Shown here one piece after another: positions 20,357 through 37,011 of a DNA stretch of 64,000 nucleotides (the first letter of the stretch is position 1; each line of letters starts with the position of its first letter). Under the pieces are notes generated by a model that was not told the origin of the DNA, made no database searches, and worked only from the letters and a program-made list of their open reading frames with translations. This DNA comes from Fidelibacterota bacterium (lineage in GTDB: Bacteria; Fidelibacterota; UBA8477; JABMPR01): NCBI GenBank assembly GCA_018650795.1, contig JABIFG010000282.1, positions 1 to 64,000 of the forward strand, written 5' to 3'. The position numbers were made by a program, and so were the translations under genes.

Positions 20357-22147
20357 CTAAAAAGGCCAGAAAATTGGCGCCATGACAGAAGCAATTACCC
20401 AAAAAATCAAATTCAAGGGCACACCGGCTTTCACATAATCCATAAACTGGTATTTACCTGGACCATAGACCATAAGATTAGTTTGATAGCCAATCGGGGT
20501 CATAAAGCTGGCTGATGCGGCATAGCAAATAGTGAATATTAGCGGTCGGGAGTCAATACCCATATTATTGGCTGCTGCAATGGCAATGGGGGTCAGCACG
20601 ATGGCTGCTGCATTATTAGAAACCACCGATGTGATTATGGCCGTGATAAAATAGAGGCTGGAAAGCAGCACATAGGGCGCTAGATCTGCCGAGAATGTTT
20701 TTGCCAGGGAAGTCACGCTCTCACCAATCAGGTGCGCTGCACCACTGGTTTCCATGGCCGTTCCAAAAGGAATAAAGGCGGCAATAAAGATGATGACTGG
20801 CCAATTAATGGCACTGTAAGCTTCTCTCGTTGAAATGTGCTTGGTAACCAGCAGCAGGAAGGCACCTGCCAGAGCGGCCGCCAGAATATCAACAAGTCCT
20901 GTTGCTGCCGAGAGCATGATAATGGGAATAATGATGACCGCCAGCCAACGGATTCTTTTTTTGCGCATATTGATTTCATGATGCTGCAGAATGATCAAGT
21001 CTGGATCATTACGCATTTCTGATATCTGGTCAGCTGGCATGAGCATAAGCAGGGTATCAGCAAAGTGGAGGCGAATATGGGCGATCTTTTGTTTGATGGT
21101 AACGCCTCTGCGGCCAATGGCCAGAACAAAAGCCTTGTATTTCTTGCGGAAATTCAGATCGCTCAGGGATTTACCATAGAGTGTTGAATCGGGACCAACC
21201 AAGCCTTCAACCAACACATTGTCTCCAGCCTGAAGTTCTTTTTCACCCAACTTGACCTCTGAGAGCGCTAAAACTTTTTCCTGCTGAAGAAATTTTAAAA
21301 AATTCTCCAGAGCCCCCTTTGTTAACAGAATGTCACCTTGAAGCAGAATGAGGTTTCCAATATTGCTGGTAAGTTGAATACCATCTCGAATTACAGCCAG
21401 AACGGTAATGTCATAGCGCTCATTCACCTGGCGGTCTCGACAATTTGACCCAATCAGGGGTGAATCATTATCTACTTTGAATTCAGTGAGATAGGTAGAC
21501 ATATGATATTTACCTACCAGGGTACTCACGGGAGCACGAGAGGGTAAAAGCTTAGGTAAAACAACCAGGCTATAGATGGATCCGACTACAAGAAAAATGA
21601 TCCCCATGGGTAAAAACTCAAACATTCCCAGAGCCTGGAGACCGTGCGCTTCACCTACAGAACTGACCAACAGATTGGTTGAGGTCCCGATGAGGGTGAT
21701 GGTGCCGCCATAAATAGCCGCATAGGAGAGCGGTAAAAGTAGTTTTGAGGGTGAGATTCTAAATTTTGAAGCCATGTGCATGGCTACCGGGATAAAGATT
21801 GCCACGGCTGCAACATTGTTGATAAATCCCGAGAAAATGCTTACTGTAACGAAGAAGAGACCTATCCCCAGCCACTTTACCTTCTTTTCCATGTTGATGA
21901 AATATTGGGCGAAATTTTCAAGGATACCGGTTTTTACCAGGGCGTGACTAAGTACAAACATCACGGCAACAGTAAGCACAGCCTTGTTGCTAAACCCTGC
22001 AATGGCCTGATCACTATCTACGTATCCCGTAAACCAGAGTACCAGCAAGAGACCCAGGCCCAAAACATCGATAGGGAGGACTTCCAAAACCAGAAGCACT
22101 AGCAAGAGAATCATCAAGACGAATATTCCCGCTATCTCAAATCCCAT
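20357..22147 (-). CDS. SLC13 / CitT-type permease with RCK_C domains
   Basis: A 596-residue transporter. N-terminal membrane helices (about 1-200) and C-terminal helices (about 400-596) flank a soluble centre with two TrkA-C (RCK_C) domains near 205-370 (DNDSPLIGSNCRDRQVNERY and GPDSTLYGKSLSDLNFRKKY). Family repeats AGFSNKAVLTVA and VVSNNAAAIVLTPIAIA are the re-entrant SNN/T-type substrate loops. Members move sulfate, di- or tricarboxylates or other anions, usually with Na+; RCK_C domains suggest ligand gating. The substrate is unknown. Transcribed alone; the 313-base upstream gap is described separately. Confidence 0.83.
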   Translation of the reverse strand: MGFEIAGIFVLMILLLVLLVLEVLPIDVLGLGLLLVLWFTGYVDSDQAIAGFSNKAVLTVAVMFVLSHALVKTGILENFAQYFINMEKKVKWLGIGLFFVTVSIFSGFINNVAAVAIFIPVAMHMASKFRISPSKLLLPLSYAAIYGGTITLIGTSTNLLVSSVGEAHGLQALGMFEFLPMGIIFLVVGSIYSLVVLPKLLPSRAPVSTLVGKYHMSTYLTEFKVDNDSPLIGSNCRDRQVNERYDITVLAVIRDGIQLTSNIGNLILLQGDILLTKGALENFLKFLQQEKVLALSEVKLGEKELQAGDNVLVEGLVGPDSTLYGKSLSDLNFRKKYKAFVLAIGRRGVTIKQKIAHIRLHFADTLLMLMPADQISEMRNDPDLIILQHHEINMRKKRIRWLAVIIIPIIMLSAATGLVDILAAALAGAFLLLVTKHISTREAYSAINWPVIIFIAAFIPFGTAMETSGAAHLIGESVTSLAKTFSADLAPYVLLSSLYFITAIITSVVSNNAAAIVLTPIAIAAANNMGIDSRPLIFTICYAASASFMTPIGYQTNLMVYGPGKYQFMDYVKAGVPLNLIFWVIASVMAPIFWPF

Positions 22148-26157: not shown

Positions 26158-26186
26158 GAAGAGGCCTCGAAATTCGAGGCCTCTTT
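26158..26186. terminator. Bidirectional terminator between convergent genes
   Basis: Perfect 10-base stem GAGGCCTCGA (26161-26170) / TCGAGGCCTC (26174-26183) with a 3-base loop, AA on the left and TTT on the right. It sits between the two convergent stop codons and can serve both strands. Confidence 0.85.
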
Positions 26187-26208: not shown

Positions 26209-27264
26209 TTAGCTTGGTGTCTGGAACTTTGTTTTCTGTTCCTGATAGTAGCTGTCTTCTGGCTGAAGCACGATACATTCATCCATCACAGCAACAGCTT
26301 CATCGATACGACCAAGCTTCCAGAGAACCTCACCTTTGGTATCCATGATTTGTGCCTTATCTCTAGCGCCCTCGTCTTCAGCCAACAGGGCGATACCCTG
26401 ATTTATACGCTCCAGGGCGTTCTCAAGATTTAAGTCAAGCTCGGTCATGCGCCAGGCATAACCATTCAAAAGACCTGATGTTTCTTTCTGAACGCCAGAC
26501 ATAAAGTCAACATAACGACGATAGGTATCTGCTTCAGCAGCATTGTCTTTCATCCCACGATAAAAGTTACGTAAAGCATCATAAGCCTTTGGAAGCACTT
26601 CAGTATTAGTTTCGTTGTTGATAAATGAAACCAGTGTCTCAGGGTCTTGATTCTCTTTGGCGTGATACAGTGCCATTTTAAGGGCCGCCGTTGAGTGTAA
26701 CAAGGGCTCTACAGATTCGAGCCCAAAGAGTATTTCCCAGTAGGTCATGGCAGCCTGGAGGCCACTCATAGTTTCTACCTTACCCGCCAAAGAAACTAGC
26801 AGGTCAGCATTGTCTGGATCTTCCTGAAGCTGTCGCACAAGATCAGGAACCGTGTTGATTCCATTGCGAATGCGGGTCATTTCTGCCAGATATTCAGCTG
26901 GTGGTCTGTAACCTACAATACGATCAATTTCGTTGCCCTCTTCGTCAACAAAGACATAGGAGGGAATAGAGTGAATATTGAAGCGTTTTGACAAATCGTC
27001 GTTTTGGGAAGAATCAACATTTAAATGATAGGAAACAAAATTTTCAGATGTATATGCTATGAGAGCGGGGTCAATAAATGTTTCGGCGTCCAGCCGATTA
27101 CAGGAGCCTCACCATTTTGCCCAGAACTCGTAGCCAACTATTTTTCCGTTAGCCTCTACTTGAACACTAGCATCAGTAATCCATGGGTAAACCGGTTCTT
27201 TTTCTGCACAGGCCAGGATCATCATTCCGGCTATCGCGACGAACCACACTTTTCTTATTTTCAT
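26209..27264 (-). CDS. Thioredoxin-like lipoprotein with TPR region; candidate selenoprotein (in-frame TGA at the redox site)
   Basis: Read from the ATG at 27264, the frame gives a 351-residue product if TGA at 27109-27111 (codon 52) is decoded. The N-terminus MKIRKVWFVAIAGMMILAC is a lipoprotein signal (Cys19). The frame then reads YEFWAKW-TGA-GSCNRLD, exactly where thioredoxins have W-C-x-x-C, so the residue would be Sec in a U-G-S-C motif. After it come FVSYHLNVD, LSKRFNIHSIPSYVFVDEEG (cis-Pro loop) and from about 140 on TPR-like helices. The 299 codons after TGA contain no stop. Starting the gene after the TGA (near 26994) would leave half a thioredoxin fold without signal or active site. 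A GC-rich hairpin follows the TGA at the right distance (27083-27097). Alternatives are a fresh nonsense mutation or a base error. Selenocysteine machinery is not in the window. Likely role: periplasmic thiol redox. Confidence 0.75.
27083..27097 (-). promoter_or_regulatory. bSECIS-like stem-loop directly downstream of the in-frame TGA
   Basis: In the mRNA, UCGGC-UGGAC-GCCGA forms a perfect 5-bp stem with a 5-base loop whose second and third bases are GG. The loop guanines lie 18-19 bases after the UGA. Bacterial SECIS elements need a short apical stem with a G in the first two loop bases, roughly 16-37 bases from UGA. A lower UGU/ACA helix could extend it. No experimental support. Confidence 0.6.
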
Positions 27265-27400
27265 AACAATCCTTTCAAACTCTCAAATCAAAAATATAGT
27301 CATGTGAAACTATTGTCAGTGGCAGGAGATTGCAACGCTCATTCCGGCTCAAATCATCTTTGCACCTGGCAAAAGCTAAGCGCTATCATGGATTGAAGAT

Positions 27401-27426
27401 AAAAAGCCAACTGAAGGTGGCTTTTT
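27401..27426 (-). terminator. Rho-independent terminator downstream of the act operon
   Basis: Stem AAAAAGCCA (27401-27409) / TGGCTTTTT (27418-27426) with an 8-base loop. Read on the minus strand it ends in TTTTT after the stem. It separates the act operon from the selenoprotein candidate gene. Confidence 0.8.
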
Positions 27427-27489: not shown

Positions 27490-28674
27490 CTAGTGAACAG
27501 TGTGCTCAATGGATTTCTGTAGCTTGGGATCACCCATGGCAATGATGGGATCTTTGCCCGACTTCATGGACACCCACCACAGAAAGATACCACCAATCCC
27601 AAGGAGTGTAGTAAAATGCATCCACGAAAGCTGGAGGTGGTTGTCATTAAACGTAGGGTTGATCATCCAGAAGTGATCAACATAGTGCATAAACAGAGCC
27701 AGGCTGGAAATAGATACGATTAACACCGGAATCCTTTTTACAGCCCTGAAAGCCAGAACTATAAATGGCACAATAAAATGAAACATGATCAAAAAGAGGC
27801 TGACGTACTTCCAGCCATGCTCCCAGCGGTGGAGAAACCAGATGGTTTCCTCGGGAATGTTGCCATACCAGATCAGGAAGTACTGGGCGCCACCGATATA
27901 GGCCCACCAGGCCGTAAAGGCGAAAAGGAATTTTCCCAGATCATGGGTGTGTTCCGCGGTTACGATTTCACCTGCTCCATTATTTCGTAATCTTATCGCC
28001 ATTATGGATAACAAAGCAAGAGAAGCCAAAAAGCCCCCTGACCACACATACACACCAAAAATGGTTGAGTACCAGTGGGGATCAAGACTCATGAGCCAGT
28101 CAAAAGCGAAGACTGTTACCGTAATGGCGTACAGAACTGTGCCGCCGGCAGCCAGACGGCGCATTTTTCCAAGACTTGCCGCATCACCACCATCTTGAGC
28201 TATAGACAGCTTTCTCAAGCCGTGAGCCAGCCATGACCAAATTGCAAAAATGACGATACCGCGGATAAAAAAGAAGGTTGTATTAAGATAAGGTGCTTTC
28301 CACTGCAGGATCTTATCATGCATGACATGGGGATCGTCCACGTGTGACCAATGAAATAGATCGTGCATTCCAAAGAAAAGCGGGATCATCAGCAAACCCA
28401 TAATGGGCAGGGCGCAAGCCAGGTTTTCAGCGACGCGTCGCATGACCACACCCCAATAGGCTCCAGTAATGTGATGAATGAGGACAAAGAATAGTCCCCC
28501 CAGTCCTATTGTGGTAAAAAAGGTGAAGGCGGTGAGATAGGCCTGGAAGAATTGTGCATGATCCATAAATGCACCTATCACCGAAAGCAGCAAGCCGACA
28601 CCACCAGCAATCAAAGCCTTCTGGGTGAATGAGCTAGTCTCTAATAACATGTATGTGTTTTTGTCGAATTTCAT
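27490..28674 (-). CDS. actF: Alternative complex III membrane subunit ActF
   Basis: A 394-residue inner-membrane protein with about ten helices, last gene of the alternative complex III operon. Family features include FFTTIGLGGLFFVLIHHITGAYWGVVMRR, MSLDPHWYSTIFGVYVWSGG and the His-rich FHFIVPFIVLAFRAVKR, typical of the NrfD/PsrC-like ActF subunit. With ActC it forms the membrane quinol-binding part that passes electrons to the heme and iron-sulfur subunits. It begins 16 bases after the actE stop. Two hairpins follow its stop. Confidence 0.92.
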   Translation of the reverse strand: MKFDKNTYMLLETSSFTQKALIAGGVGLLLSVIGAFMDHAQFFQAYLTAFTFFTTIGLGGLFFVLIHHITGAYWGVVMRRVAENLACALPIMGLLMIPLFFGMHDLFHWSHVDDPHVMHDKILQWKAPYLNTTFFFIRGIVIFAIWSWLAHGLRKLSIAQDGGDAASLGKMRRLAAGGTVLYAITVTVFAFDWLMSLDPHWYSTIFGVYVWSGGFLASLALLSIMAIRLRNNGAGEIVTAEHTHDLGKFLFAFTAWWAYIGGAQYFLIWYGNIPEETIWFLHRWEHGWKYVSLFLIMFHFIVPFIVLAFRAVKRIPVLIVSISSLALFMHYVDHFWMINPTFNDNHLQLSWMHFTTLLGIGGIFLWWVSMKSGKDPIIAMGDPKLQKSIEHTVH

Positions 28675-28690
28675 AGTGCGCTCAAGACCT

Positions 28691-29254
28691 TTAATTCTTT
28701 TGTAGTGATCGGAGGTAGCCGATTATAGCCCAGCGATCTTCTACGGATACTTGCGCTTTGAGTGATGGCATGTTGAGCCAACCAGCTGTGATAGCGTTGA
28801 ACATGTGTCCATCGCTCAAATTTATGATGCGCTCATCATAAAAATTGGCTGGTGGTATAGGGTATTTATAGAACAGTATTTTACCCTGGCCGTCGGCGTT
28901 TATGCCGTGACAGGCAGAACAGTAGATATCATAGCGTTCTTCACCACGCTTAAGCATGTTTGCAGTAAATACCATGGGGGCCGAGGCTATAAGTTCACCG
29001 GCAGCATTTTTACCGTGGTAGTAAGCATCATCAGCGCGTAATTCATCGCGAGCCACCGTTCCTTCTACGGGTGTCCGCATGGTTGCGCCATCCACAAAAA
29101 AGTTACTCTCAGACTGAGCCTTATACTTTTTTTGTGAATCCATATTGGGGTTCAGATGAACCGGGGGCTTGTCGGAATAATTTCCGCGACCACAAGTGAC
29201 AATCATTAAAATTGAAACGGTCAATAACATCAATCGAGTAAGTCGTTTTTTCAT
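28691..29254 (-). CDS. actE: Alternative complex III monoheme cytochrome c subunit ActE
   Basis: I start at the ATG giving MKKRLTRLMLL (187 aa), because it opens a lipoprotein signal (IVTCGRG) and lies 11 bases after actD. The frame runs open further upstream into actD without similarity. One heme c site, YCSACHGINADGQG, is followed by a distal Met in the NMPSLK segment of a class I cytochrome c. The N-terminal part DKPPVHLNPNMDSQKKYKAQ is typical of ActE. It hands electrons towards soluble cytochrome c or the oxidase on the periplasmic side. Confidence 0.92.
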   Translation of the reverse strand: MKKRLTRLMLLTVSILMIVTCGRGNYSDKPPVHLNPNMDSQKKYKAQSESNFFVDGATMRTPVEGTVARDELRADDAYYHGKNAAGELIASAPMVFTANMLKRGEERYDIYCSACHGINADGQGKILFYKYPIPPANFYDERIINLSDGHMFNAITAGWLNMPSLKAQVSVEDRWAIIGYLRSLQKN

Positions 29255-29264
29255 GATTATCTCC

Positions 29265-29798
29265 TTACTCGCCAGCCACCAGCTCAACATCGGTACCACC
29301 AATTGAGCTGAGAAATTCTTGAATTTTCTGGTCGTCAAACTGTTCATCGTCTGACTCAATGCTGACATAGAAAGCATCGTCGGTCACTTTTGCAAATTTG
29401 TCTGAATAGAATACCGGATGATGCAAACGGGGAAGCCTGTTTAGGTGGAACATACCAAAGACAGCCCCAAAAGCGCCAAAAAGCACAAAGAGTGCAAAGG
29501 TAACGATGACGAAAGCCTGCCAACTGAAGAATGGCTTGCCTGATATCACCAGGGGATATTCAACAGCTGCAACCCAATACTGCAGCCCCATACCAATTGT
29601 CGCACCGGCGAGAGTCATTCCACCAACAATATAGCCGAGAGGGGAACGCTTGAGACCCATGGCATCATCCATCCCATGGATCGGGAAGGGAGAGTGACAA
29701 TCAAAACTTTTATAGCCAGCATCACGAATTTTCTTGGCTGCCTCAATAAGTTCAGCAGGATTCGCAAAGCGGGCGAGAGCACCTAATGTTTGACTCAT
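29265..29798 (-). CDS. actD: Alternative complex III subunit ActD (DUF3341)
   Basis: A 177-residue protein with two membrane helices (about 55-80 and 90-115). The DUF3341 signature is present: [39 protein letters not shown] and the proline-rich [16 protein letters not shown]. ActD is a structural subunit of the quinol:cytochrome c oxidoreductase. The start overlaps the actC stop by 4 bases (translational coupling). Confidence 0.92.
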
Positions 29799-31210
29799 TT
29801 GGCACCTCCATCGTGTGGATAGTTATGGGGATCGGCTTCCGGCAGCACGCCTTTAACTTCTGAGAGCGCTACCATGGGTAAAAATCTCAGGAAAAGCAGG
29901 AAGAAAGTAAAGAAAAGTCCAAAGCTTCCTACAAAGGTCAAGATATCCCAGATAGACGGCGAGTAATAATCCCAACTGGAAGGGAGAAAATCACGCGATA
30001 ATGAGGTTACTGTAATCACAAAACGTTCAAACCACATGCCGATATTTACAAAAATAGATGCGACAAACATAACCGGGATACTGCGGCGTAATTTCTTAAA
30101 CCAAAAAATTTGGGGCGTGATCACATTACAGGTAAACATAATCCAATAAGCCCAGGCATAAGGTCCCAGGGCGCGATTGATAAACGCAAAGACCTCGAAT
30201 TCATTCCCCGAATACCAGGCAATAAAAAATTCTGTCATATAGGCATAGCCCACCATGGAGCCGGTAACCAGGATGATCTTGTTCATTTTCTCAAGATGGT
30301 TAACTGTGATTATATCTTCGAGGCCATAGATCTTTCTGGCAATAATGGCCAGGGTCATAACCATACCAAAACCCGAGAATACTGCACCCGCTACAAAGTA
30401 TGGCGGGAAGATAGTGGTATGCCATCCAGGCACCATGCTGGTTGCAAAGTCTGTTGCCACAACGGAGTGAACAGATAAAACCAACGGTGTCGCCAGCCCA
30501 GCTAACATGAGATAAGCTTTTTCATAATGTTGCCATTGACGATTTCCACCTCTCCAACCGAGAGCAAAGAAGCCTAATACCTTTTTGCGTACTTTTGTGG
30601 CGCGGTCTCTCAGGGTGGCCAGATCGGGAATAAGACCAACATACCAGAAGAGAGTAGAAACTGTGAAATAAGTTCCAACGGCGAAGATATCCCATAGAAG
30701 CGGGCTTCTAAAGTTGGGCCAGATCAACATCTGGTTGGGAATTGGAAACATGTAGTAGGCCAACCAGATTCTGCCAACGTGAATACCTGGAAAAACCAGA
30801 GCTGTAATCACAGCAAAAATTGTCATTGCCTCAGCAAAGCGGTTAATGGCCGTCCTCCACTGTTGTCTCAATAAAAACAGAATGGCTGAAATCAGGGTTC
30901 CGGCATGACCAATACCCACCCAGAACACAAAGTTTACAATGGCCCAACCCCATCCAACGGGGTTGTTCAGGCCCCAGATGCCAGTGCCTTCCCAGGCCAA
31001 CCAGCCAATGGCTCCCAACAGAACCATCATACCGGAAACGGCCATAGCAAACAACAGATACCATTTCGGTGGAGCTGGTGTTTCTACGATTCCGCTGACT
31101 TTATCCGTCAGGGTGCTGAAGGTATGGCCACCAGTAACTAGCAATTCCTCGCCCCCGATTGCTTCAGTGGCAGCGGAATCTCTTTGGGGATGTTTATTTA
31201 ATATACTCAC
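29795..31210 (-). CDS. actC: Alternative complex III membrane subunit ActC (NrfD-like)
   Basis: A 471-residue NrfD/PsrC-type protein with about ten helices. [20 protein letters not shown] is the diagnostic quinol-site segment (conserved His). The family stretch [24 protein letters not shown] follows, then the conserved [19 protein letters not shown]. It is the major quinol-oxidising membrane subunit. It follows actB after 34 bases and overlaps actD. Confidence 0.94.
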
Positions 31211-31244
31211 TTTTGAGTCCCATATAATTTCATTGGTTCAAGAC

Positions 31245-34200
31245 CTACGCCGTATGCTCAACTGCAGCATGTCCAGATTCCAATTCAGGATTCGGATTGC
31301 GCAGCTTGGCACCATAGCTGGTTCGTGGTTTCAAGTTCAATTCACCTAACAATGAATAGTCCCTGTTCTGTGCTTTTATTTTGGAAACTTCGCTATTGGG
31401 GTCGTTAATGTTTCCAAAAGCAATGGCATCGGTGGGACAGGCCTGCTGACAAGCAACTACGATATCGCTTTCTTCCAATTCCCGGCCTTCGTTCTTAACT
31501 TCGATCTTGGCAACATTGATTCGCTGTACACAAAAAGTACATTTCTCCATGACACCGCGGAAACGGATGGAGACATCAGGATTCATAGCCATTTGTACAA
31601 TCTCTGGCATATCCTTGGTGAAGTTGAAGAAGTTGAAGCGTCGAACTTTATAGGGACAGTTGTTGGCGCAATAACGAGTTCCAATACAGCGATTATAGGC
31701 CATTTCGTTCAGACCTTCTTCGCTATGGGTTGTGGCTGCTACAGGACAAACACCCTCACAAGGCGCCAGCTCACAATGCTGACAGGCAATGGGCTGAAAG
31801 ACCATTTCGGGATCTTCAACATCACCTGTATAATAGCGGTCCAGACGAATCCAGCTCATATCACGACCGTTATTCACTTCTTCCTTGCCAATAACGGGAA
31901 TATTGTTTTCGCTCTGACAGGCAATCGTACATGCGCTACAGCCGGTACAGCTGGTCAGGTCAATGGACATGCCCCATTGGTTTCCTTCCGAATAATCATG
32001 CTCTTTCCACATGGATTTGAGCTCATTATTTTCTGCGAAGGCCATGGCAAATTCTGGGTCTTTCTGGTAATCAGCCAGTGTGCTCTCGCGGACGATGGTC
32101 GGCAAGCGCTCCTGAATGGCTTCTGCAGCCAGTTTTTCTTCATCAAAACCATGATTATCCTGAACACAGGCCAGGGTATGAGTGCCGAAAGCTTTTTCAG
32201 CTGAAAAGCCGGAGGCAATACTCATCCCGGAGGCATTGCGCAAGACACTTACGTTGGCACCAACACCAGTAGAAACACGACCAATTTCACGGCCATAACC
32301 CAACTCAAGAGCAAGAGTATTGTCAGCCATGCCTGGTTGTATCCAAACAGGCAGCACTACATCAACACCACCGCTTGAGATCTTCAGGCGGTCTTCATTT
32401 TTTACACCAAGATTCATGGCCGTATTGGCTGAAATCAGTGCAACATTATCCCAGGTCAGCTTAGTTACGGGATCGGGCAGTTCCTGCATCCAACCATTGT
32501 TGGCATATCGACCATCATGGTTGGAGAAGGAGCTTGTAAAAATGACTTCCATATCACCCGCAGAAGCCGTCGATGAATAATACCGACTCATGGAAACAGC
32601 GCCTTGAGCTCGAGTCTTGTTTACTGCTACAGAGGATTCTCTGCTGGAGGCAAGAAAACCATCATGAACGACTTTGCGCCAGGCTTTTTCAAAATTAGAT
32701 GAACCTATAATATCTTTCCAGGTTTCTTGAACCACGCCGTAAGCCCAAACTTCTTCATCGGCTACCAGGTCAGCCAGGACATCAACATTGCTTTTACCAT
32801 CAAATAGTGGAGCGATGAGAGGTTGAATGACTCCAACACCACCATACCCAGAGACATCTCCCCAGCTTTCCAGGAAATGTGCTTCAGGAATATGCCAGGT
32901 TGTCTTTGCTGAGGTTTCATCTACATGTGAAGATAAATGTACAGAATATTTAACCTTTGTAAGGCCTGTTAAAAAGTCAACATCGGCGGGTGCTTGATAA
33001 ACTGGATTACCACCCAGAATTATCAGTGATTCCACCTTGCCGGCATTCATTGCTTGGCCCAGCTCAACAAAAGACTTCAGGCTGGAAGCCTGCATGTCAG
33101 GGTTTAAAGTGTAGCTTACTGTTTTATTGGTGTTGCTTAACACATCATTTATCAGAGCAATCAGTGTGTGCACTTCAGCGGGCTGGCGACGGCCACCCAG
33201 CACCAGCGAGTTACCCTTGTTGTGAATCAAGTCTTTGGCAACAGCGCTAATCCACTTTTTATCAAAATTGGCGTTGACGCGTGGAGCACGAATATTCAAT
33301 CCTTGTGCGCTAAGTTCGTGTGCCAGGGCTGCAGCAAACATACCGACCTGTCCACTCTGAACTCTCAGGCGATGATCTGCCATGCCGCCAGTAATGGTAT
33401 AAGTTCCCTCAACCACATAGAGACGATTCATGCTGTCTTTTTCAGAACGGACCTTTCGACGAGAGGCAAAATCCCGTGCATGGGGAATGTCATTGCTATC
33501 CATTTGGAGAAAATCAGAATCCAAAGACAATACGACATTAGCGTCTTTAAAATTATATCTGGGTTGAGCCGGGGTCCCTGTTGCAGCCCCAACGCCAGCA
33601 AAAACATTCTCATCACTGACACTGTCATAGGTAACCCATTGCGCCTGTGGGAACTTCTTCTTGAAGGCCTTACTGAGGCGCATCATTGTGGGAGAGGTGA
33701 AACTTTCAGAGAGGATGGCCAGTCCTTCGCCACCATTTTCGGTATATTGATCCGTCTGTTTTTTCCAGGCTGCCCGATAGGAGCTCCAGGTGGAGTTTTT
33801 GCCTTTATTTAATACCATTTGCGAGCGGTCTGGATCGTACAGGTTGAGCATTTCAGCCTGCATAAAAACATTTGAAGAGCCGCCAGAAGCTGGATGGAGC
33901 TTATTGCCCTCTATCTTAGTGGGACGACCTTCGTGACTTTCGACCAACAAACCAAAGGATTCATTTCCAAAAGGCATGCTGGTGGCGTAATACTGTGGTT
34001 TTCCAGGAATAATCTCTTCTGGTTTAACCACGTAGGGGATGATTTTCTCGACAGGTCGTCGACAGCTGGTTAAACCAGCCAGCGCCATGGAAGCACCCAT
34101 CAAGCCTAAAAATTTTCTGCGTGAAACAGGGTTTTTCAACTCATCGGCACCCTCTGGAAATTCTTTTTCAACCAATTCCTTGAATTCTGGAGTTTCGGCG

Positions 34201-34262
34201 AGATGATCCAGGCTACGCCAGTATTTTTTACCCTGTGTGCTGGGGTTTATTGCGTTACTCAT
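31245..34262 (-). CDS. actB: Alternative complex III iron-sulfur / molybdopterin-fold subunit ActB
   Basis: A 1005-residue periplasmic subunit. I choose the ATG giving MSNAINPSTQG, because it overlaps the actA stop as ATGA; another Met lies three codons upstream. A Tat signal VSRRKFLGLMGASMALAG ends in LTSC, so it is exported folded and possibly lipid-anchored. The first about 750 residues resemble a molybdopterin oxidoreductase without cofactor ligands. The C-terminal ferredoxin part has four cysteine clusters: CTGCSACTIAC, CQHCELAPCEGVC, CIGTRYCANNC and CTFCVQ...CQQACPTDAI. It carries electrons within the complex from the membrane to the heme subunits. Confidence 0.95.
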   Translation of the reverse strand: MSNAINPSTQGKKYWRSLDHLAETPEFKELVEKEFPEGADELKNPVSRRKFLGLMGASMALAGLTSCRRPVEKIIPYVVKPEEIIPGKPQYYATSMPFGNESFGLLVESHEGRPTKIEGNKLHPASGGSSNVFMQAEMLNLYDPDRSQMVLNKGKNSTWSSYRAAWKKQTDQYTENGGEGLAILSESFTSPTMMRLSKAFKKKFPQAQWVTYDSVSDENVFAGVGAATGTPAQPRYNFKDANVVLSLDSDFLQMDSNDIPHARDFASRRKVRSEKDSMNRLYVVEGTYTITGGMADHRLRVQSGQVGMFAAALAHELSAQGLNIRAPRVNANFDKKWISAVAKDLIHNKGNSLVLGGRRQPAEVHTLIALINDVLSNTNKTVSYTLNPDMQASSLKSFVELGQAMNAGKVESLIILGGNPVYQAPADVDFLTGLTKVKYSVHLSSHVDETSAKTTWHIPEAHFLESWGDVSGYGGVGVIQPLIAPLFDGKSNVDVLADLVADEEVWAYGVVQETWKDIIGSSNFEKAWRKVVHDGFLASSRESSVAVNKTRAQGAVSMSRYYSSTASAGDMEVIFTSSFSNHDGRYANNGWMQELPDPVTKLTWDNVALISANTAMNLGVKNEDRLKISSGGVDVVLPVWIQPGMADNTLALELGYGREIGRVSTGVGANVSVLRNASGMSIASGFSAEKAFGTHTLACVQDNHGFDEEKLAAEAIQERLPTIVRESTLADYQKDPEFAMAFAENNELKSMWKEHDYSEGNQWGMSIDLTSCTGCSACTIACQSENNIPVIGKEEVNNGRDMSWIRLDRYYTGDVEDPEMVFQPIACQHCELAPCEGVCPVAATTHSEEGLNEMAYNRCIGTRYCANNCPYKVRRFNFFNFTKDMPEIVQMAMNPDVSIRFRGVMEKCTFCVQRINVAKIEVKNEGRELEESDIVVACQQACPTDAIAFGNINDPNSEVSKIKAQNRDYSLLGELNLKPRTSYGAKLRNPNPELESGHAAVEHTA

Positions 34263-34909
34263 CGGTGACATCCTGTACAGTCAGTGATCGGAGCCTTGAT
34301 ATCCAAGAGCTCCTTCTGTTTGGCGGCAAATTCAGCCTGGTTTGCCGGTGGCGTCCAGGTCATGTTGGTAACTTCGTTAGCGGGGCGCAAGTGATCGTCC
34401 GGGTTGCGATGACAGTCCAGACACCAGCCCATACTTAAGGGTTTATGCTGGGCGACCACATCCATTTCGGCAATGTTGCCATGACAGCTAGCACAACCCA
34501 CACCTACTGTGATATGCGCGGAATGATCAAAGTAGACATAATCCGGAGATTTATGAACTCGGATCCATTCCAGGGGAGTCCCAGTTTTAAAGCTTTCTCG
34601 GACCAGGGACAGTTTATCACTATCGGCCTTGATCATGTTGTGACAATTCATACAGGTTTTTGTCGGAGGCAAGCCGGCAACGGGAGAGGTCTCCACGCCA
34701 GTGTGACAGAACCGACAATCTAAGCCAAGGTCCCGTACATGCACTTTGTGGCTGTAGGAGACGGGCTGTGCAGGACGATAACCAACATCAGTATACCACG
34801 GTGAAGCATAGTACCAGATCAGACCCACAATTACAACCGTGGTTAGACCGGCACCAACAGCAGCATACAACGGGGCTTTATTCGTCCATTTGGGGAATAT
34901 CTGAGCCAA
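34259..34909 (-). CDS. actA: Alternative complex III pentaheme cytochrome c subunit ActA
   Basis: A 216-residue protein, first gene of the operon. One N-terminal membrane helix (about 14-33) anchors a periplasmic domain with five CxxCH heme sites: CRFCH, CMNCH, CASCH, CLDCH and CTGCH. This number is standard for ActA. It accepts electrons from ActB and passes them to ActE or soluble cytochromes. The last site lies at the very C-terminus and its stop overlaps actB. A hairpin precedes it at 34965-34981. Confidence 0.95.
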   Translation of the reverse strand: MAQIFPKWTNKAPLYAAVGAGLTTVVIVGLIWYYASPWYTDVGYRPAQPVSYSHKVHVRDLGLDCRFCHTGVETSPVAGLPPTKTCMNCHNMIKADSDKLSLVRESFKTGTPLEWIRVHKSPDYVYFDHSAHITVGVGCASCHGNIAEMDVVAQHKPLSMGWCLDCHRNPDDHLRPANEVTNMTWTPPANQAEFAAKQKELLDIKAPITDCTGCHR

Positions 34910-35157: not shown

Positions 35158-36015
35158 CTACCTTCCACGACCCCGCATGGTTGGATCCAGGGCGTCTCTC
35201 AGACCCTCTCCAAAGAGGTTGAAGCCAATTACCATAACCGCTACAGCCAGGCCAGGGAAAACAGATATCCACCATTCTCCGCGTAGGTGCATTCTACCAA
35301 AAGCAATCATAGAGCCCCAGCTAGGCTCTGGTGGTTGAGCTCCCAGACCGATAAAGGATAGTGATGCTTCAGCCATGACGGCTCCGGCGATACTCATGGT
35401 AAAGGCCACAATCACAGGCGCCAGGCTGTTCGGTAGAACATGCCGCATGATGATTCGCCACTGTGAATACCCTAGCGATCGGGCTGCAACAACATATTCC
35501 TGTTCAATAATGGTCAATACTTGAGATCTCATAATTCTAGCCATGCCTGGCCAACTCACCAGACCAATAGCCAACATGGCCACTTCAATACTGGGACGTG
35601 GCACAGCGGCTGTAATTCCAATCATAAACAGGAGGGCCGGAAACCCGAACATCACATCAGTAAAACGCATGATAATGGTTTCAACCCACCCTCGAAAGAA
35701 TCCGGCAATAAGTCCAAGAATCGCCCCGATAAACATAGAAATCGAACTTGCAATAATGCCTACTTTGAGAGAGATGCGCGCACCATAAATAATTCGAGAA
35801 AGTACATCACGCCCCTCTTCATCTGTCCCCAACCAATGTTGTGTTGACGGCGGCTGAAGACTGATATCCAGGTCTGCATCGTAAGGATCATAGGGTGCTA
35901 CCCAGTGGGCAAAGACTCCTACAAAAACCAACAAAGCCACCAGGAAAAGGCCGAACAGAGCAACCTTATTCTTGCGAATCTGTCTGATGGTTTCTGATGT
36001 GATGCTACCGCGCAT
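35158..36015 (-). CDS. Peptide/nickel-type ABC transporter permease (DppC/OppC family)
   Basis: An inner-membrane permease of the binding-protein-dependent peptide/nickel family, with six helices. The N-terminal DppC/OppC segment (RQIRKNKVALFGLFLVALL) and the loop HWLGTDEEGRDVLSRIIYGARISL are characteristic. The EAA-type motif is AARSLGYSQWRIIMRHVLPNS. I start at the ATG at 36015 (MRGSITSETI), which has GAAGAAG 5 bases upstream; the longer frame to 36051 begins inside a palindromic repeat. It forms an operon with the DppB-like gene. No ATPase or binding protein lies next to the pair. Confidence 0.88.
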   Translation of the reverse strand: MRGSITSETIRQIRKNKVALFGLFLVALLVFVGVFAHWVAPYDPYDADLDISLQPPSTQHWLGTDEEGRDVLSRIIYGARISLKVGIIASSISMFIGAILGLIAGFFRGWVETIIMRFTDVMFGFPALLFMIGITAAVPRPSIEVAMLAIGLVSWPGMARIMRSQVLTIIEQEYVVAARSLGYSQWRIIMRHVLPNSLAPVIVAFTMSIAGAVMAEASLSFIGLGAQPPEPSWGSMIAFGRMHLRGEWWISVFPGLAVAVMVIGFNLFGEGLRDALDPTMRGRGR

Positions 36016-36051
36016 ACACTTCTTCCATGAGATGATTTGTTTCATCCACAT

Positions 36052-36075
36052 GCGGCGATTCGAATCGCCGCCTAG
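36052..36075. repeat. GCGGCGATTCGAATCGCCGC palindromic repeat between the two permease genes
   Basis: A perfect 20-base palindrome at 36052-36071, followed by CTAG. It is a variant of the GGGATTCGAATCCC element found at 6217, 12624 and 41271. It occupies nearly the whole gap between the two permease genes. Confidence 0.65.
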
Positions 36076-36084
36076 ATAGCCACA

Positions 36085-37011
36085 TCATTTTTTATTCTCC
36101 AAGCGGATGCGCGGATCAATGACGCCATACAGTATGTCCACGATAAAATTGGCTGTTACAAAAATCAAAGCCGTAACCAGAACTGCACCTTGGATGACGG
36201 GAAAATCACGTTTCAAAATGGCGGTCAGGGCGAGACGTCCAATACCGGGCCAGTTGAAAATGGATTCTGTGAGCACCGCACCAGACAGATAGGATCCGAA
36301 ATCAACACCAATGATGGTCACAACAGGAATGAGGGTGTTTTTCAAGGCGTGCTTGGCTACAACCATAAAATTAGACAAGCCTTTGGCCTTCGCGGTACGG
36401 ACATAGTCCTGGGATAACACTTCCAGCATATTCGCCCGGGTAACTCGCGCCAGAAATGCAGCGCTACGCGTTCCCAGGGTGATGGCTGGCAGAATGAGAT
36501 AAGGCAGACAACCATAGCCGGTGAGATAAGGCCACCCCACGGCTCGAGCTCCAATCACCAGGAGTAACCCTACCCAGAAAACCGGTGCTGATATCCCCAG
36601 CAAGGCGATTCCCATGGTTGTACGATCCAGCCAGGAATGTGGTTTTATGGCTGACACCACCCCCACAGAAATTCCCAGTAAAATCGAAACGGACATGGCT
36701 CCTACAGCCAACAACATGGTGGCAGGAAAGCGTTCCATGATCATTTGGGTTACAGGTTTTTGAGAAATAAATGATACCCCTAAATCTCCGTGGAGTAGAC
36801 CCCAGAGATAGTGACCGAATTGTTTCCAGAGAGGGTCGTTTAGATGGAACTGCTCTCGCAATCGCTCCAGTGTTTCCTCTTCATAGCGTTCGCCCACCAT
36901 GGACAATACAGGATCTCCGGGAACGATATACATCAGTATAAAAGTCAACAGGATGATTCCTAAAATCACAGGGACGAGCTGCGCAAAGCGATTAATAATG
37001 TATTGAAGCAT
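36085..37011 (-). CDS. Peptide/nickel-type ABC transporter permease (DppB/OppB family)
   Basis: A 308-residue permease with six helices. The start MLQYIINRFAQLVPVILGIILL and the stretch YIVPGDPVLSMVGERYEEETLERL are typical DppB/OppB features. The ATPase-contact EAA motif is YVRTAKAKGLSNFMVVAKHALKNTL. It would pair with the DppC-like protein to import oligopeptides, nickel or other small peptide-like ligands. The partner ATPases and substrate-binding protein must be encoded elsewhere. Immediately upstream is a large inverted repeat (37049-37131). Confidence 0.9.
   Translation of the reverse strand: MLQYIINRFAQLVPVILGIILLTFILMYIVPGDPVLSMVGERYEEETLERLREQFHLNDPLWKQFGHYLWGLLHGDLGVSFISQKPVTQMIMERFPATMLLAVGAMSVSILLGISVGVVSAIKPHSWLDRTTMGIALLGISAPVFWVGLLLVIGARAVGWPYLTGYGCLPYLILPAITLGTRSAAFLARVTRANMLEVLSQDYVRTAKAKGLSNFMVVAKHALKNTLIPVVTIIGVDFGSYLSGAVLTESIFNWPGIGRLALTAILKRDFPVIQGAVLVTALIFVTANFIVDILYGVIDPRIRLENKK

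What the first reader, a model, noticed from the sequence alone, without database searches (positions are those of the whole stretch)
26209..27264. Candidate selenoprotein: TGA replaces the first Cys of a thioredoxin redox motif and is followed by a bSECIS-like hairpin
Seen: the frame from ATG 27264 has one TGA (27109-27111) at the exact first-Cys position of W-C-x-x-C (reads WAKW-TGA-GSCNRLD), with 51 coherent codons before it (lipoprotein signal) and 299 open codons after it (thioredoxin fold, TPR). A stem UCGGC/GCCGA with loop UGGAC begins 11 bases after the TGA and puts the loop guanines 18-19 bases downstream. Known: many selenoproteins are thioredoxin-fold proteins with UxxC, and bacterial SECIS elements follow this geometry. 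Inferred: codon 52 is selenocysteine, giving a periplasmic U-G-S-C lipoprotein. Ordinary gene callers would truncate it to the part after about 26994.
Basis: partly seen in the sequence, partly recalled or inferred. Interest (0 to 1): 0.88.

Follow-up and report, generated by a model that had tools for sequence, protein, structure and literature searches.

The report
Selenocysteine thioredoxin-TPR lipoprotein family
A gene that looks cut in two by a stop codon is very probably one gene for a selenium-containing, membrane-anchored redox protein, found in many lineages of a phylum of uncultured marine bacteria and apparently not described before.

Summary
The minus-strand frame 27264-26209 is one 351-residue gene with TGA at codon 52. 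I aligned that codon in 74 of 245 held genomes of the same phylum (Candidatus Neomarinimicrobiota). It is TGA in 61 and TGT/TGC in 13, with no other codon. The frame is under purifying selection on both sides of the TGA. The hairpin after it shows compensatory changes and a sharp dip in synonymous variation. In the most divergent group a different hairpin replaces it. Two Cys versions keep an intact hairpin as a relic. The window's own genome has tRNA-Sec, SelA, SelB and a SelD that itself has an in-frame TGA. Codon 52 is therefore very probably selenocysteine.

The protein is a predicted lipoprotein with a DsbD-gamma-like thioredoxin domain (U-x-x-C) fused to a TPR superhelix. Its whole-length architecture is closest to CnoX/YbbN, but it carries an export signal. 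I propose that it reduces or protects thiols of envelope client proteins held by the TPR part. That function is inferred, at about even odds. I found no Trx-TPR selenoprotein in the 2026 inventory of 119 families (two of three parts read) or in my searches. I rate it a new variant of a known kind. Selenium has not been measured.

The parts
26209..27264 (-). Whole selenoprotein gene, 351 residues plus TAA stop
   Evidence: homologues
27109..27111 (-). TGA, codon 52, read as selenocysteine
   Evidence: TGA in 61 and TGT/TGC in 13 of 74 aligned genomes
27083..27097 (-). SECIS-like hairpin UCGGC-UGGAC-GCCGA inside the coding sequence
   Evidence: covariation, synonymous constraint, synonymous-redraw control
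27100..27102 (-). Codon 55, second Cys of the U-G-S-C motif (resolving role inferred)
   Evidence: invariant in the 45 rows of A1
27208..27264 (-). Lipoprotein signal peptide ending at Cys19 (MMILAC), predicted
   Evidence: sequence; C19 is 90% or more conserved in A1
26884..27156 (-). Thioredoxin_2 domain PF13098, residues 37-127
   Evidence: E 1.2e-14, 54.9 bits over cut-off 27
26962..26964 (-). Codon 101, invariant Pro at the place of the thioredoxin cis-proline (role inferred)
26221..26850 (-). All-helical TPR-like superhelix, residues 139-348
   Evidence: AlphaFold2, profile match to TPR chains
27270..27275 (-). Probable ribosome-binding site AAAGGA, 5 bases before ATG
   Evidence: read from the sequence; inferred
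26159..26185 (-). Intrinsic-terminator-like hairpin after the gene, 12-pair stem
27401..27426 (.). Palindromic terminator-like hairpin between the gene and the Alternative Complex III operon, so the gene is probably its own transcript (inferred)
   Evidence: one search lists it on +; the T run on - is visible

Best explanation
This is a genuine bacterial selenoprotein gene. Ribosomes reading UGA codon 52 are directed by the in-frame hairpin, SelB and tRNA-Sec to insert selenocysteine, making a 351-residue lipoprotein with a U-G-S-C active site on a DsbD-gamma-like thioredoxin domain followed by a TPR superhelix. Supported by sequence evidence: the Sec codon, the SECIS-like element, the decoding genes, the export signal and the fold. 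Inferred: the protein sits in the envelope. Its TPR part holds client proteins while the selenol reduces or protects their cysteines. It is recharged by a membrane thiol reductase such as DsbD; two proteins with the DsbD membrane domain are encoded in the same genome. When selenium is short, translation would stop at codon 52 and yield only a 51-residue peptide. The confidence given is for the selenoprotein identity; the client-holding role alone I put at about 0.5.
For: Codon 52 is TGA in 61, TGT in 9 and TGC in 4 of 74 genomes. Of five stem pairs, 4 show changes on both sides, 94% of cells pair, and 0/500 shuffles reach the covariation score. A replacement hairpin lies in 8 divergent members. 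Synonymous difference is 0 at codons +3 to +6, +8 and +9 among 12 same-genus genes against 0.46 over +1..+99; the lowest of 110 windows starts at +2. tRNA-Sec, SelA, SelB, SelD. Median dN/dS 0.06-0.11 in all three parts, before and after the TGA. Cys rows L034 and L038 keep a 5/5 hairpin beside Sec sisters. Fold: mean pLDDT 93.1; first Foldseek hit YbbN/CnoX, then DsbD-gamma. DsbD_TM proteins in the genome. In 5 loci the gene lies beside a double-FKBP peptidyl-prolyl isomerase gene.
Against: No selenium has been measured and no protein seen. The hairpin of the window sequence alone is not outstanding (z -0.80). With a loose 4-of-5 criterion, 27.8 of 60 rows would pass by chance. The second hairpin rests on 8 rows: its count of pairs changed on both sides is reached by 93 of 500 shuffles, its covariation score by 7. 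Of the 61 TGA genomes, 10 have no SelB match over the cut-off, some of them incomplete or with SelB in pieces. The gene is not universal: 5 of 19 same-genus genomes, one of them 95% complete, have no such match, and many genomes of the phylum with SelB lack it. Neighbour genes differ between families, so context does not fix the function. The match to CnoX is poor as a rigid whole (TM 0.25-0.31, rmsd 22). Export and partners are predicted only.
Confidence: 0.9

Rival explanations
1. The selenoprotein reading is right but the role is narrower: a dedicated thiol reductase for one envelope assembly path (for example haem-protein maturation beside the respiratory complex in this genus), or a peroxide or methionine-sulfoxide reductase, not a client-holding redox protein.
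For: In this genus the gene follows the Alternative Complex III operon with its c-type cytochromes. A CcmH-type TPR profile matches two members below its cut-off.
Against: None of 6 loci from outside the genus that were tested carries those neighbours, and in some genus members several kilobases separate the two. Other families have different neighbours.
Confidence: 0.3
2. TGA 52 is decoded as cysteine or tryptophan by an altered tRNA or code, not as selenocysteine.
For: Homologues have Cys here, and a frame open under a changed code is not evidence of Sec.
Against: Full selABCD set. TGA ends 5 of 36 long ORFs of the window and 9 of the 72 family genes whose stop is in the data. A local hairpin is under selection, which a reassigned codon would not need.
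Confidence: 0.03
3. TGA is a true stop: the gene is a pseudogene or assembly error, or only the downstream 261-codon ORF is made.
For: The mechanical ORF list gives only the 261-aa ORF.
Against: The same TGA in 61 genomes; dN/dS about 0.1 upstream and downstream; the downstream ORF would lack the signal peptide, the first thioredoxin strand and the active site.
Confidence: 0.02

Closest known systems
CnoX / YbbN (chaperedoxin; PDB 3QOU, E. coli)
   Same: Thioredoxin domain followed by a TPR domain; best Foldseek hit, aligned over 339 columns. Caulobacter CnoX functions as a reductase (PMC6282202, passages).
   Different: CnoX hands clients to GroEL/ES, which is cytosolic (location recalled), and the E. 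coli form has SxxC and no oxidoreductase activity (PMC8129009, PMC6282202, passages). This protein has a lipoprotein signal and UxxC. Sequence identity 15%; rigid superposition poor.
DsbD C-terminal (gamma) domain
   Same: Among the closest thioredoxin domains of known structure by profile (E about 3e-19, after the putative disulfide isomerase 2kuc at 1e-27) and by fold (TM to target 0.66-0.73); periplasmic reductase with CxxC (recalled).
   Different: DsbD-gamma is part of a membrane protein, has no TPR, and uses Cys (recalled).
Thiol:disulfide interchange selenoprotein, PF13098, UxxC (row of Table 1, PMC13188914)
   Same: Same Pfam domain and UxxC motif.
   Different: No lipoprotein-Trx-TPR architecture is named in that table; the words TPR and lipoprotein do not occur in the paper's main text. 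The listed protein itself was not compared.
Selenoprotein TsoB (NF045694)
   Same: Its C-terminal DsbD-like domain is the top NCBIfam match (53.8 bits).
   Different: Cut-off is 805 bits; TsoB is a rhodanese/DsbD fusion-like protein with two Sec.
UGSC-containing protein (NF041046) and GOS_C (NF045500)
   Same: UGSC or UxxC motif, thioredoxin-like fold, marine metagenomes (PMC2398784, passages).
   Different: Neither model matches the window protein at E up to 10. The UGSC motif is not fixed in this family: 15 of 61 TGA rows have it.

Membership tests
Bacterial selenoprotein | In-frame UGA aligned with Cys or UGA in homologues | tested here: met
   61 TGA, 13 Cys, 0 other of 74
Bacterial selenoprotein | SECIS-like hairpin directly after the UGA with a guanine in the apical loop | tested here: met
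   covariation; G in the loop in 61 of 61; 5/5 pairs in 43 of 60 vs 5.0 expected. The published bSECIS program was not run.
Bacterial selenoprotein | selA, selB, selC, selD in the genome | tested here: met
Bacterial selenoprotein | Selenium found in the protein | not testable with these tools
   needs 75Se labelling or mass spectrometry
CnoX / YbbN | N-terminal Trx domain fused to C-terminal TPR domain | tested here: met
CnoX / YbbN | Cytosolic protein without signal peptide (recalled feature) | tested here: not met
   lipoprotein signal, C19 conserved in 90% or more of A1; prediction, not localisation
CnoX / YbbN | Holdase that hands clients to GroEL/ES | not testable with these tools
   needs biochemistry
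PF13098 thioredoxin-like domain | Score over the Pfam gathering cut-off | tested here: met
   54.9 bits, cut-off 27
TsoB NF045694 | Score over the NCBIfam cut-off | tested here: not met
   53.8 against 805 bits
UGSC-containing NF041046 / GOS_C NF045500 | Match to the family model | tested here: not met
   no match of the window protein up to E 10 (HMMER's filters drop most matches above about 0.1)

The most novel reading that the evidence does not exclude
A previously undescribed selenoprotein family, widespread in one phylum: an envelope-anchored, selenium-dependent counterpart of the CnoX chaperedoxin that combines a client-binding TPR superhelix with a Sec redox centre. In several lineages Sec and Cys have been exchanged, and in some the hairpin survives beside Cys as a molecular fossil.
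Probability: 0.45. Interest if true: 0.75.

Novelty: new variant of a known kind. Interest (0 to 1): 0.63.

Why it matters
A caller that treats TGA as stop cuts this gene after codon 51 or starts it behind the active site (for the window; expected, not checked, for the other 60 TGA genomes). The family makes Sec/Cys exchange directly testable: the same predicted-exported protein exists with Sec and with Cys in close relatives, two Cys forms still carry an intact SECIS-like hairpin, and two unrelated hairpins serve the same codon. Three SAR406 (the same phylum, recalled synonym) genomes were listed in 2016 as having an 'orphan' SelD without any selenoprotein gene (PMC5029168, Table 1 passage); missed families of this kind may explain such cases, which I did not test. 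A client-binding TPR domain joined to a selenol would be a new setting for selenium chemistry in the cell envelope.

Tried and rejected
Single-sequence folding of the hairpin region: not decisive (z -0.80). A loose '4 of 5 pairs' criterion looked perfect (61 of 61 TGA rows, 5 of 13 Cys rows), but the synonymous-redraw control gives 27.8 of 60 by chance, so only the 5/5 count is used (row L130 was dropped there because it contains N). Gene neighbourhood as a guide to function: context differs by family. Rooting Sec against Cys with homologues from the phylum of a Saprospiraceae record: 5 of 395 sampled genomes have long homologues reaching into the TPR part, all with Cys, but they do not form one group and two sit on very long branches, so the ancestral state stays open (only 5 candidates per genome were scored there). 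Other in-frame TGAs of the window (29 besides 27111): several have a Cys close by and one, 20997, reads U-S-F-C, but that one lies in a wrong frame inside the citrate-transporter-type gene 20357-22147; none was tested by homology. UGSC family membership, suggested by the motif, was rejected.

Rows left out of the 74: L044/G123 starts after codon 52; L071/G097 and L072/G039 lack the N-terminus; G194 (positions 1-87, one TGA), G238 (8-135, one TGA) and G119 (thioredoxin part only) were not fetched or counted; shorter matches that cover only the thioredoxin domain were not counted; the C-terminal fragments G011:C219 and G145:C146 belong to genomes already counted. Of the 74, L029 and L060 are cut by contig ends (left out of alignment A1, kept in codon and hairpin counts), and the profile match of L132 is split. 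A1 holds 45 of the 47 rows then at hand; the 27 later rows are not in it. In the dN/dS work 11 same-genus genes were used (L025, L029 and L030 left out) and pairs with saturated dS were dropped: 23, 48 and 32 of 55 pairs remained for the three parts.

Full report
OBSERVATION. The minus strand from ATG 27264 to TAA 26211-26209 reads 51 codons, TGA (27111-27109), then 299 codons. The TGA stands where W-C-x-x-C thioredoxins have their first Cys (FWAKW-U-GSCNRLD). A mechanical ORF finder reports only 26209-26994 (261 aa from a TTG). Openness alone would not convince: 30 in-frame TGAs of the window, this one included, pass a mechanical filter, and single-sequence folding gives z = -0.80.

DECODING MACHINERY. 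The window lies in a 4.42-Mb draft genome (355 contigs, 91.5% complete). The genome holds tRNA-Sec (72 bits against a cut-off of 47; ARAGORN tRNA-SeC, anticodon tca) and SelB (346 bits against 242). SelA lies about 1.4 kb from SelB on the same contig (507 bits). SelD scores 371 bits with one in-frame TGA, which reads AAG-U-AGKI and is followed by its own GGTCC-AGG-GGACC hairpin. So the genome appears to decode UGA as Sec in at least one other, well-known selenoprotein family.

CONSERVATION OF THE CODON. A search of 149 genomes (own included) and then a profile search of the 245 held genomes of the phylum gave 74 genomes, from 16 family codes, whose match covers codon 52 and at least part of the region after the thioredoxin domain. 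I read all 74 (loci). Codon 52 is TGA in 61, TGT in 9, TGC in 4, nothing else. Rows left out are listed under Tried and rejected. The gene is not universal: 14 of 19 same-genus genomes have it. Median dN/dS among 11 same-genus genes is 0.09 before the TGA, 0.11 over the next 80 codons and 0.06 in the TPR part (23, 48 and 32 of 55 pairs; the others were saturated). TGA is an ordinary stop elsewhere: it ends 5 of 36 ORFs of 250 aa or more in the window and 9 of the 72 family genes whose stop is in the data.

HAIRPIN. In 30 distinct TGA sequences with the window's type of hairpin (31 of the 39 TGA rows then at hand), 94% of cells pair, 4 of 5 pairs show changes on both sides, and no shuffle of 500 reaches the covariation score; slid registers pair in 16-64% of cells. 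The other eight rows have another hairpin, AGACC-AGUU-GGUCU and variants, shifted by 6 bases, with 100% pairing and 2 pairs changed on both sides; support is moderate (covariation score reached by 7 of 500 shuffles, pairs changed on both sides by 93 of 500). Among 12 same-genus genes synonymous differences vanish at codons +3 to +6, +8 and +9 while codon +7, in the loop, varies; the mean over +1..+99 is 0.46, and of 110 five-codon windows the lowest starts at +2. Redrawing synonymous codons gives 5.0 expected against 43 observed perfect hairpins in 60 TGA rows. For the 13 Cys rows it is 0.3 expected and 2 observed. For the looser 4-of-5 criterion chance is high, 27.8 of 60. The first eight Cys rows pair in 52.5% of cells.

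SEC AND CYS. On a quick protein tree of the 74 with codon 52 masked, Sec and Cys exchange 7 times, at least 6 forced by starred branches. Cys rows L034 (G143) and L038 (G138) sit beside Sec sisters L039 and L110 and keep a perfect hairpin with the usual loop. Such relics are expected after a recent Sec-to-Cys change. Long homologues in 5 of 395 sampled genomes of the phylum of a Saprospiraceae record (recalled: Bacteroidota) all have Cys, but they do not root the tree cleanly, so the ancestral state is open.

CO-OCCURRENCE WITH THE MACHINERY (my count by hand). Of the 39 TGA genomes in the 149-genome set, 36 have SelB over the cut-off, 32 have tRNA-Sec over the cut-off, and all 39 have at least one. 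Of the 22 further TGA genomes, 15 have SelB over the cut-off; of the other 7 some are incomplete or show SelB in pieces (tRNA-Sec was not searched there). The 31 genomes of families f6 and f7 in the 149 fall below both cut-offs and none has a full-length homologue. Cys forms also occur in genomes with SelB, so Cys does not simply mark loss of the machinery, and many genomes with SelB lack the gene altogether.

PROTEIN. Residues 37-127 match Thioredoxin_2 (54.9 bits, cut-off 27) and the C-terminus matches TPR models below their cut-offs. Across 45 aligned members the active-site pair 52/55, Pro101 and residues of the TPR part (N267, W271, D308, T309, A323) are among the invariant columns, and Cys19 is nearly so. 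A Cys lies in residues 13-30 in 70 of 74; of the other four, L034 and L043 have one at residue 6 and 12 of the start my script chose, L041 and L116 have none there. AlphaFold2 on this alignment gives mean pLDDT 93.1, pTM 0.81: a thioredoxin-like part, then helices only. Against the PDB by profile the best are engineered TPR chains, a putative disulfide isomerase (2kuc) and DsbD-gamma. By fold the first hit is E. coli YbbN/CnoX (E 3.2e-6 over 339 columns, but TM 0.25-0.31 and rmsd 22, so the whole does not superpose), then DsbD-gamma (TM to target 0.66-0.73).

CONTEXT. In the window the gene lies between two terminator-like hairpins (and the T runs), so it is probably its own transcript. It follows an Alternative Complex III operon (27490-34909; ActD 208 bits, NrfD-type subunit, cytochromes). 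None of six loci from other genera or families carried those neighbours. Other neighbours: pntA downstream in G019, G020-G022, G028 and G033, with pntB behind it in the three examined further, G019, G020 and G028; a 4HBT thioesterase gene upstream in G087 and G143, with an accA-type gene before it in G087, and similarly sized upstream genes in G096, G101, G144, G151 and G150 that I did not annotate; an M3 peptidase downstream in G117, G084 and G122; and a double-FKBP peptidyl-prolyl isomerase upstream in G054, G106, G057, G225 and G231. The last fits a role in protein folding, but context as a whole does not fix the function.

MECHANISM. Supported by sequence: a conserved UGA at a redox-active position, a selected hairpin, complete decoding genes, an export/lipidation signal, a Trx-TPR fold. 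Inferred: Sec insertion, envelope location, re-reduction through DsbD-type proteins (two DsbD_TM matches over the cut-off in the genome), and a client-holding thiol-selenol reductase role by likeness to CnoX, which combines holdase and redox functions (PMC8129009 and PMC6282202, passages read). I hold Sec at about 0.95 and the CnoX-like role at about 0.5.

KNOWN OR NEW. The 2026 inventory of 119 prokaryotic selenoprotein families (PMC13188914: passages, and section 7 parts 1 and 2 of 3) has PF13098 and other thioredoxin-like UxxC families, but names no Trx-TPR protein; TPR, Marinimicrobi-, SAR406 and lipoprotein do not occur in its main text. The new families of the deep-Sep paper do not appear to include one (PMC12013277, passages; thioredoxin and TPR do not occur). 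NCBIfam release 20 has no family whose cut-off the window protein reaches; for the 45 members of A1 one search shows 25 of 33 matched families and, beyond the first member, no cut-offs. Library searches for Marinimicrobia/Neomarinimicrobi-/SAR406 with selenocysteine, selenoprotein or selenium, for selenoprotein with tetratricopeptide, thioredoxin and UxxC, for selenoprotein with groundwater genomes, and for chaperedoxin with selenocysteine listed no paper whose title or abstract start describes it; subscription papers are not held. The domain fusions described for GOS selenoproteins name no TPR, though several partners are called unknown (PMC2398784 section 9), and short 'Trx-like' reads of this family may lie unrecognised in that data set. 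I therefore file it as a new variant of a known kind.

Noticed in passing
L074 (G000:C120:52678-53601): SelD of the same genome has an in-frame TGA in AAG-U-AGKI, followed by a GGTCC-AGG-GGACC hairpin, so it is itself a likely selenoprotein.
   Followed up: partly
window 27490-34909, minus strand: Alternative Complex III-like operon: multihaem cytochrome, fused Fe-S/molybdopterin-like subunit, NrfD-type subunit, ActD, cytochrome c, and a 394-aa protein without a Pfam match at E 1e-4.
   Followed up: partly
L034 and L038 (G143, G138): Cys-encoding homologues that keep an intact SECIS-like hairpin after the Cys codon, beside TGA sisters: probable relics of recent Sec-to-Cys change.
   Followed up: yes
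L061-L067, L069 (families f9, f12, f13): A second hairpin, unrelated in sequence and shifted by 6 bases, serves the same Sec codon in the most divergent group.
   Followed up: partly
window 35158-37011, minus strand: Two binding-protein-dependent permease genes in one frame separated by a TGA at 36087 and an 8-pair hairpin; read as an ordinary stop between two complete genes, not a Sec codon.
   Followed up: partly
L132 (G209:C17): Cys form in a genus of TGA forms whose hairpin is decayed to 4 of 5 pairs; its profile match is split in two overlapping pieces although the frame is open.
   Followed up: no
G238:C33:1908-2288 and G194:C100:7-264: Two further matches with one TGA, covering only the first 87-135 positions; one may be a short thioredoxin-only relative with Sec, the other is cut near a contig end.
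   Followed up: no
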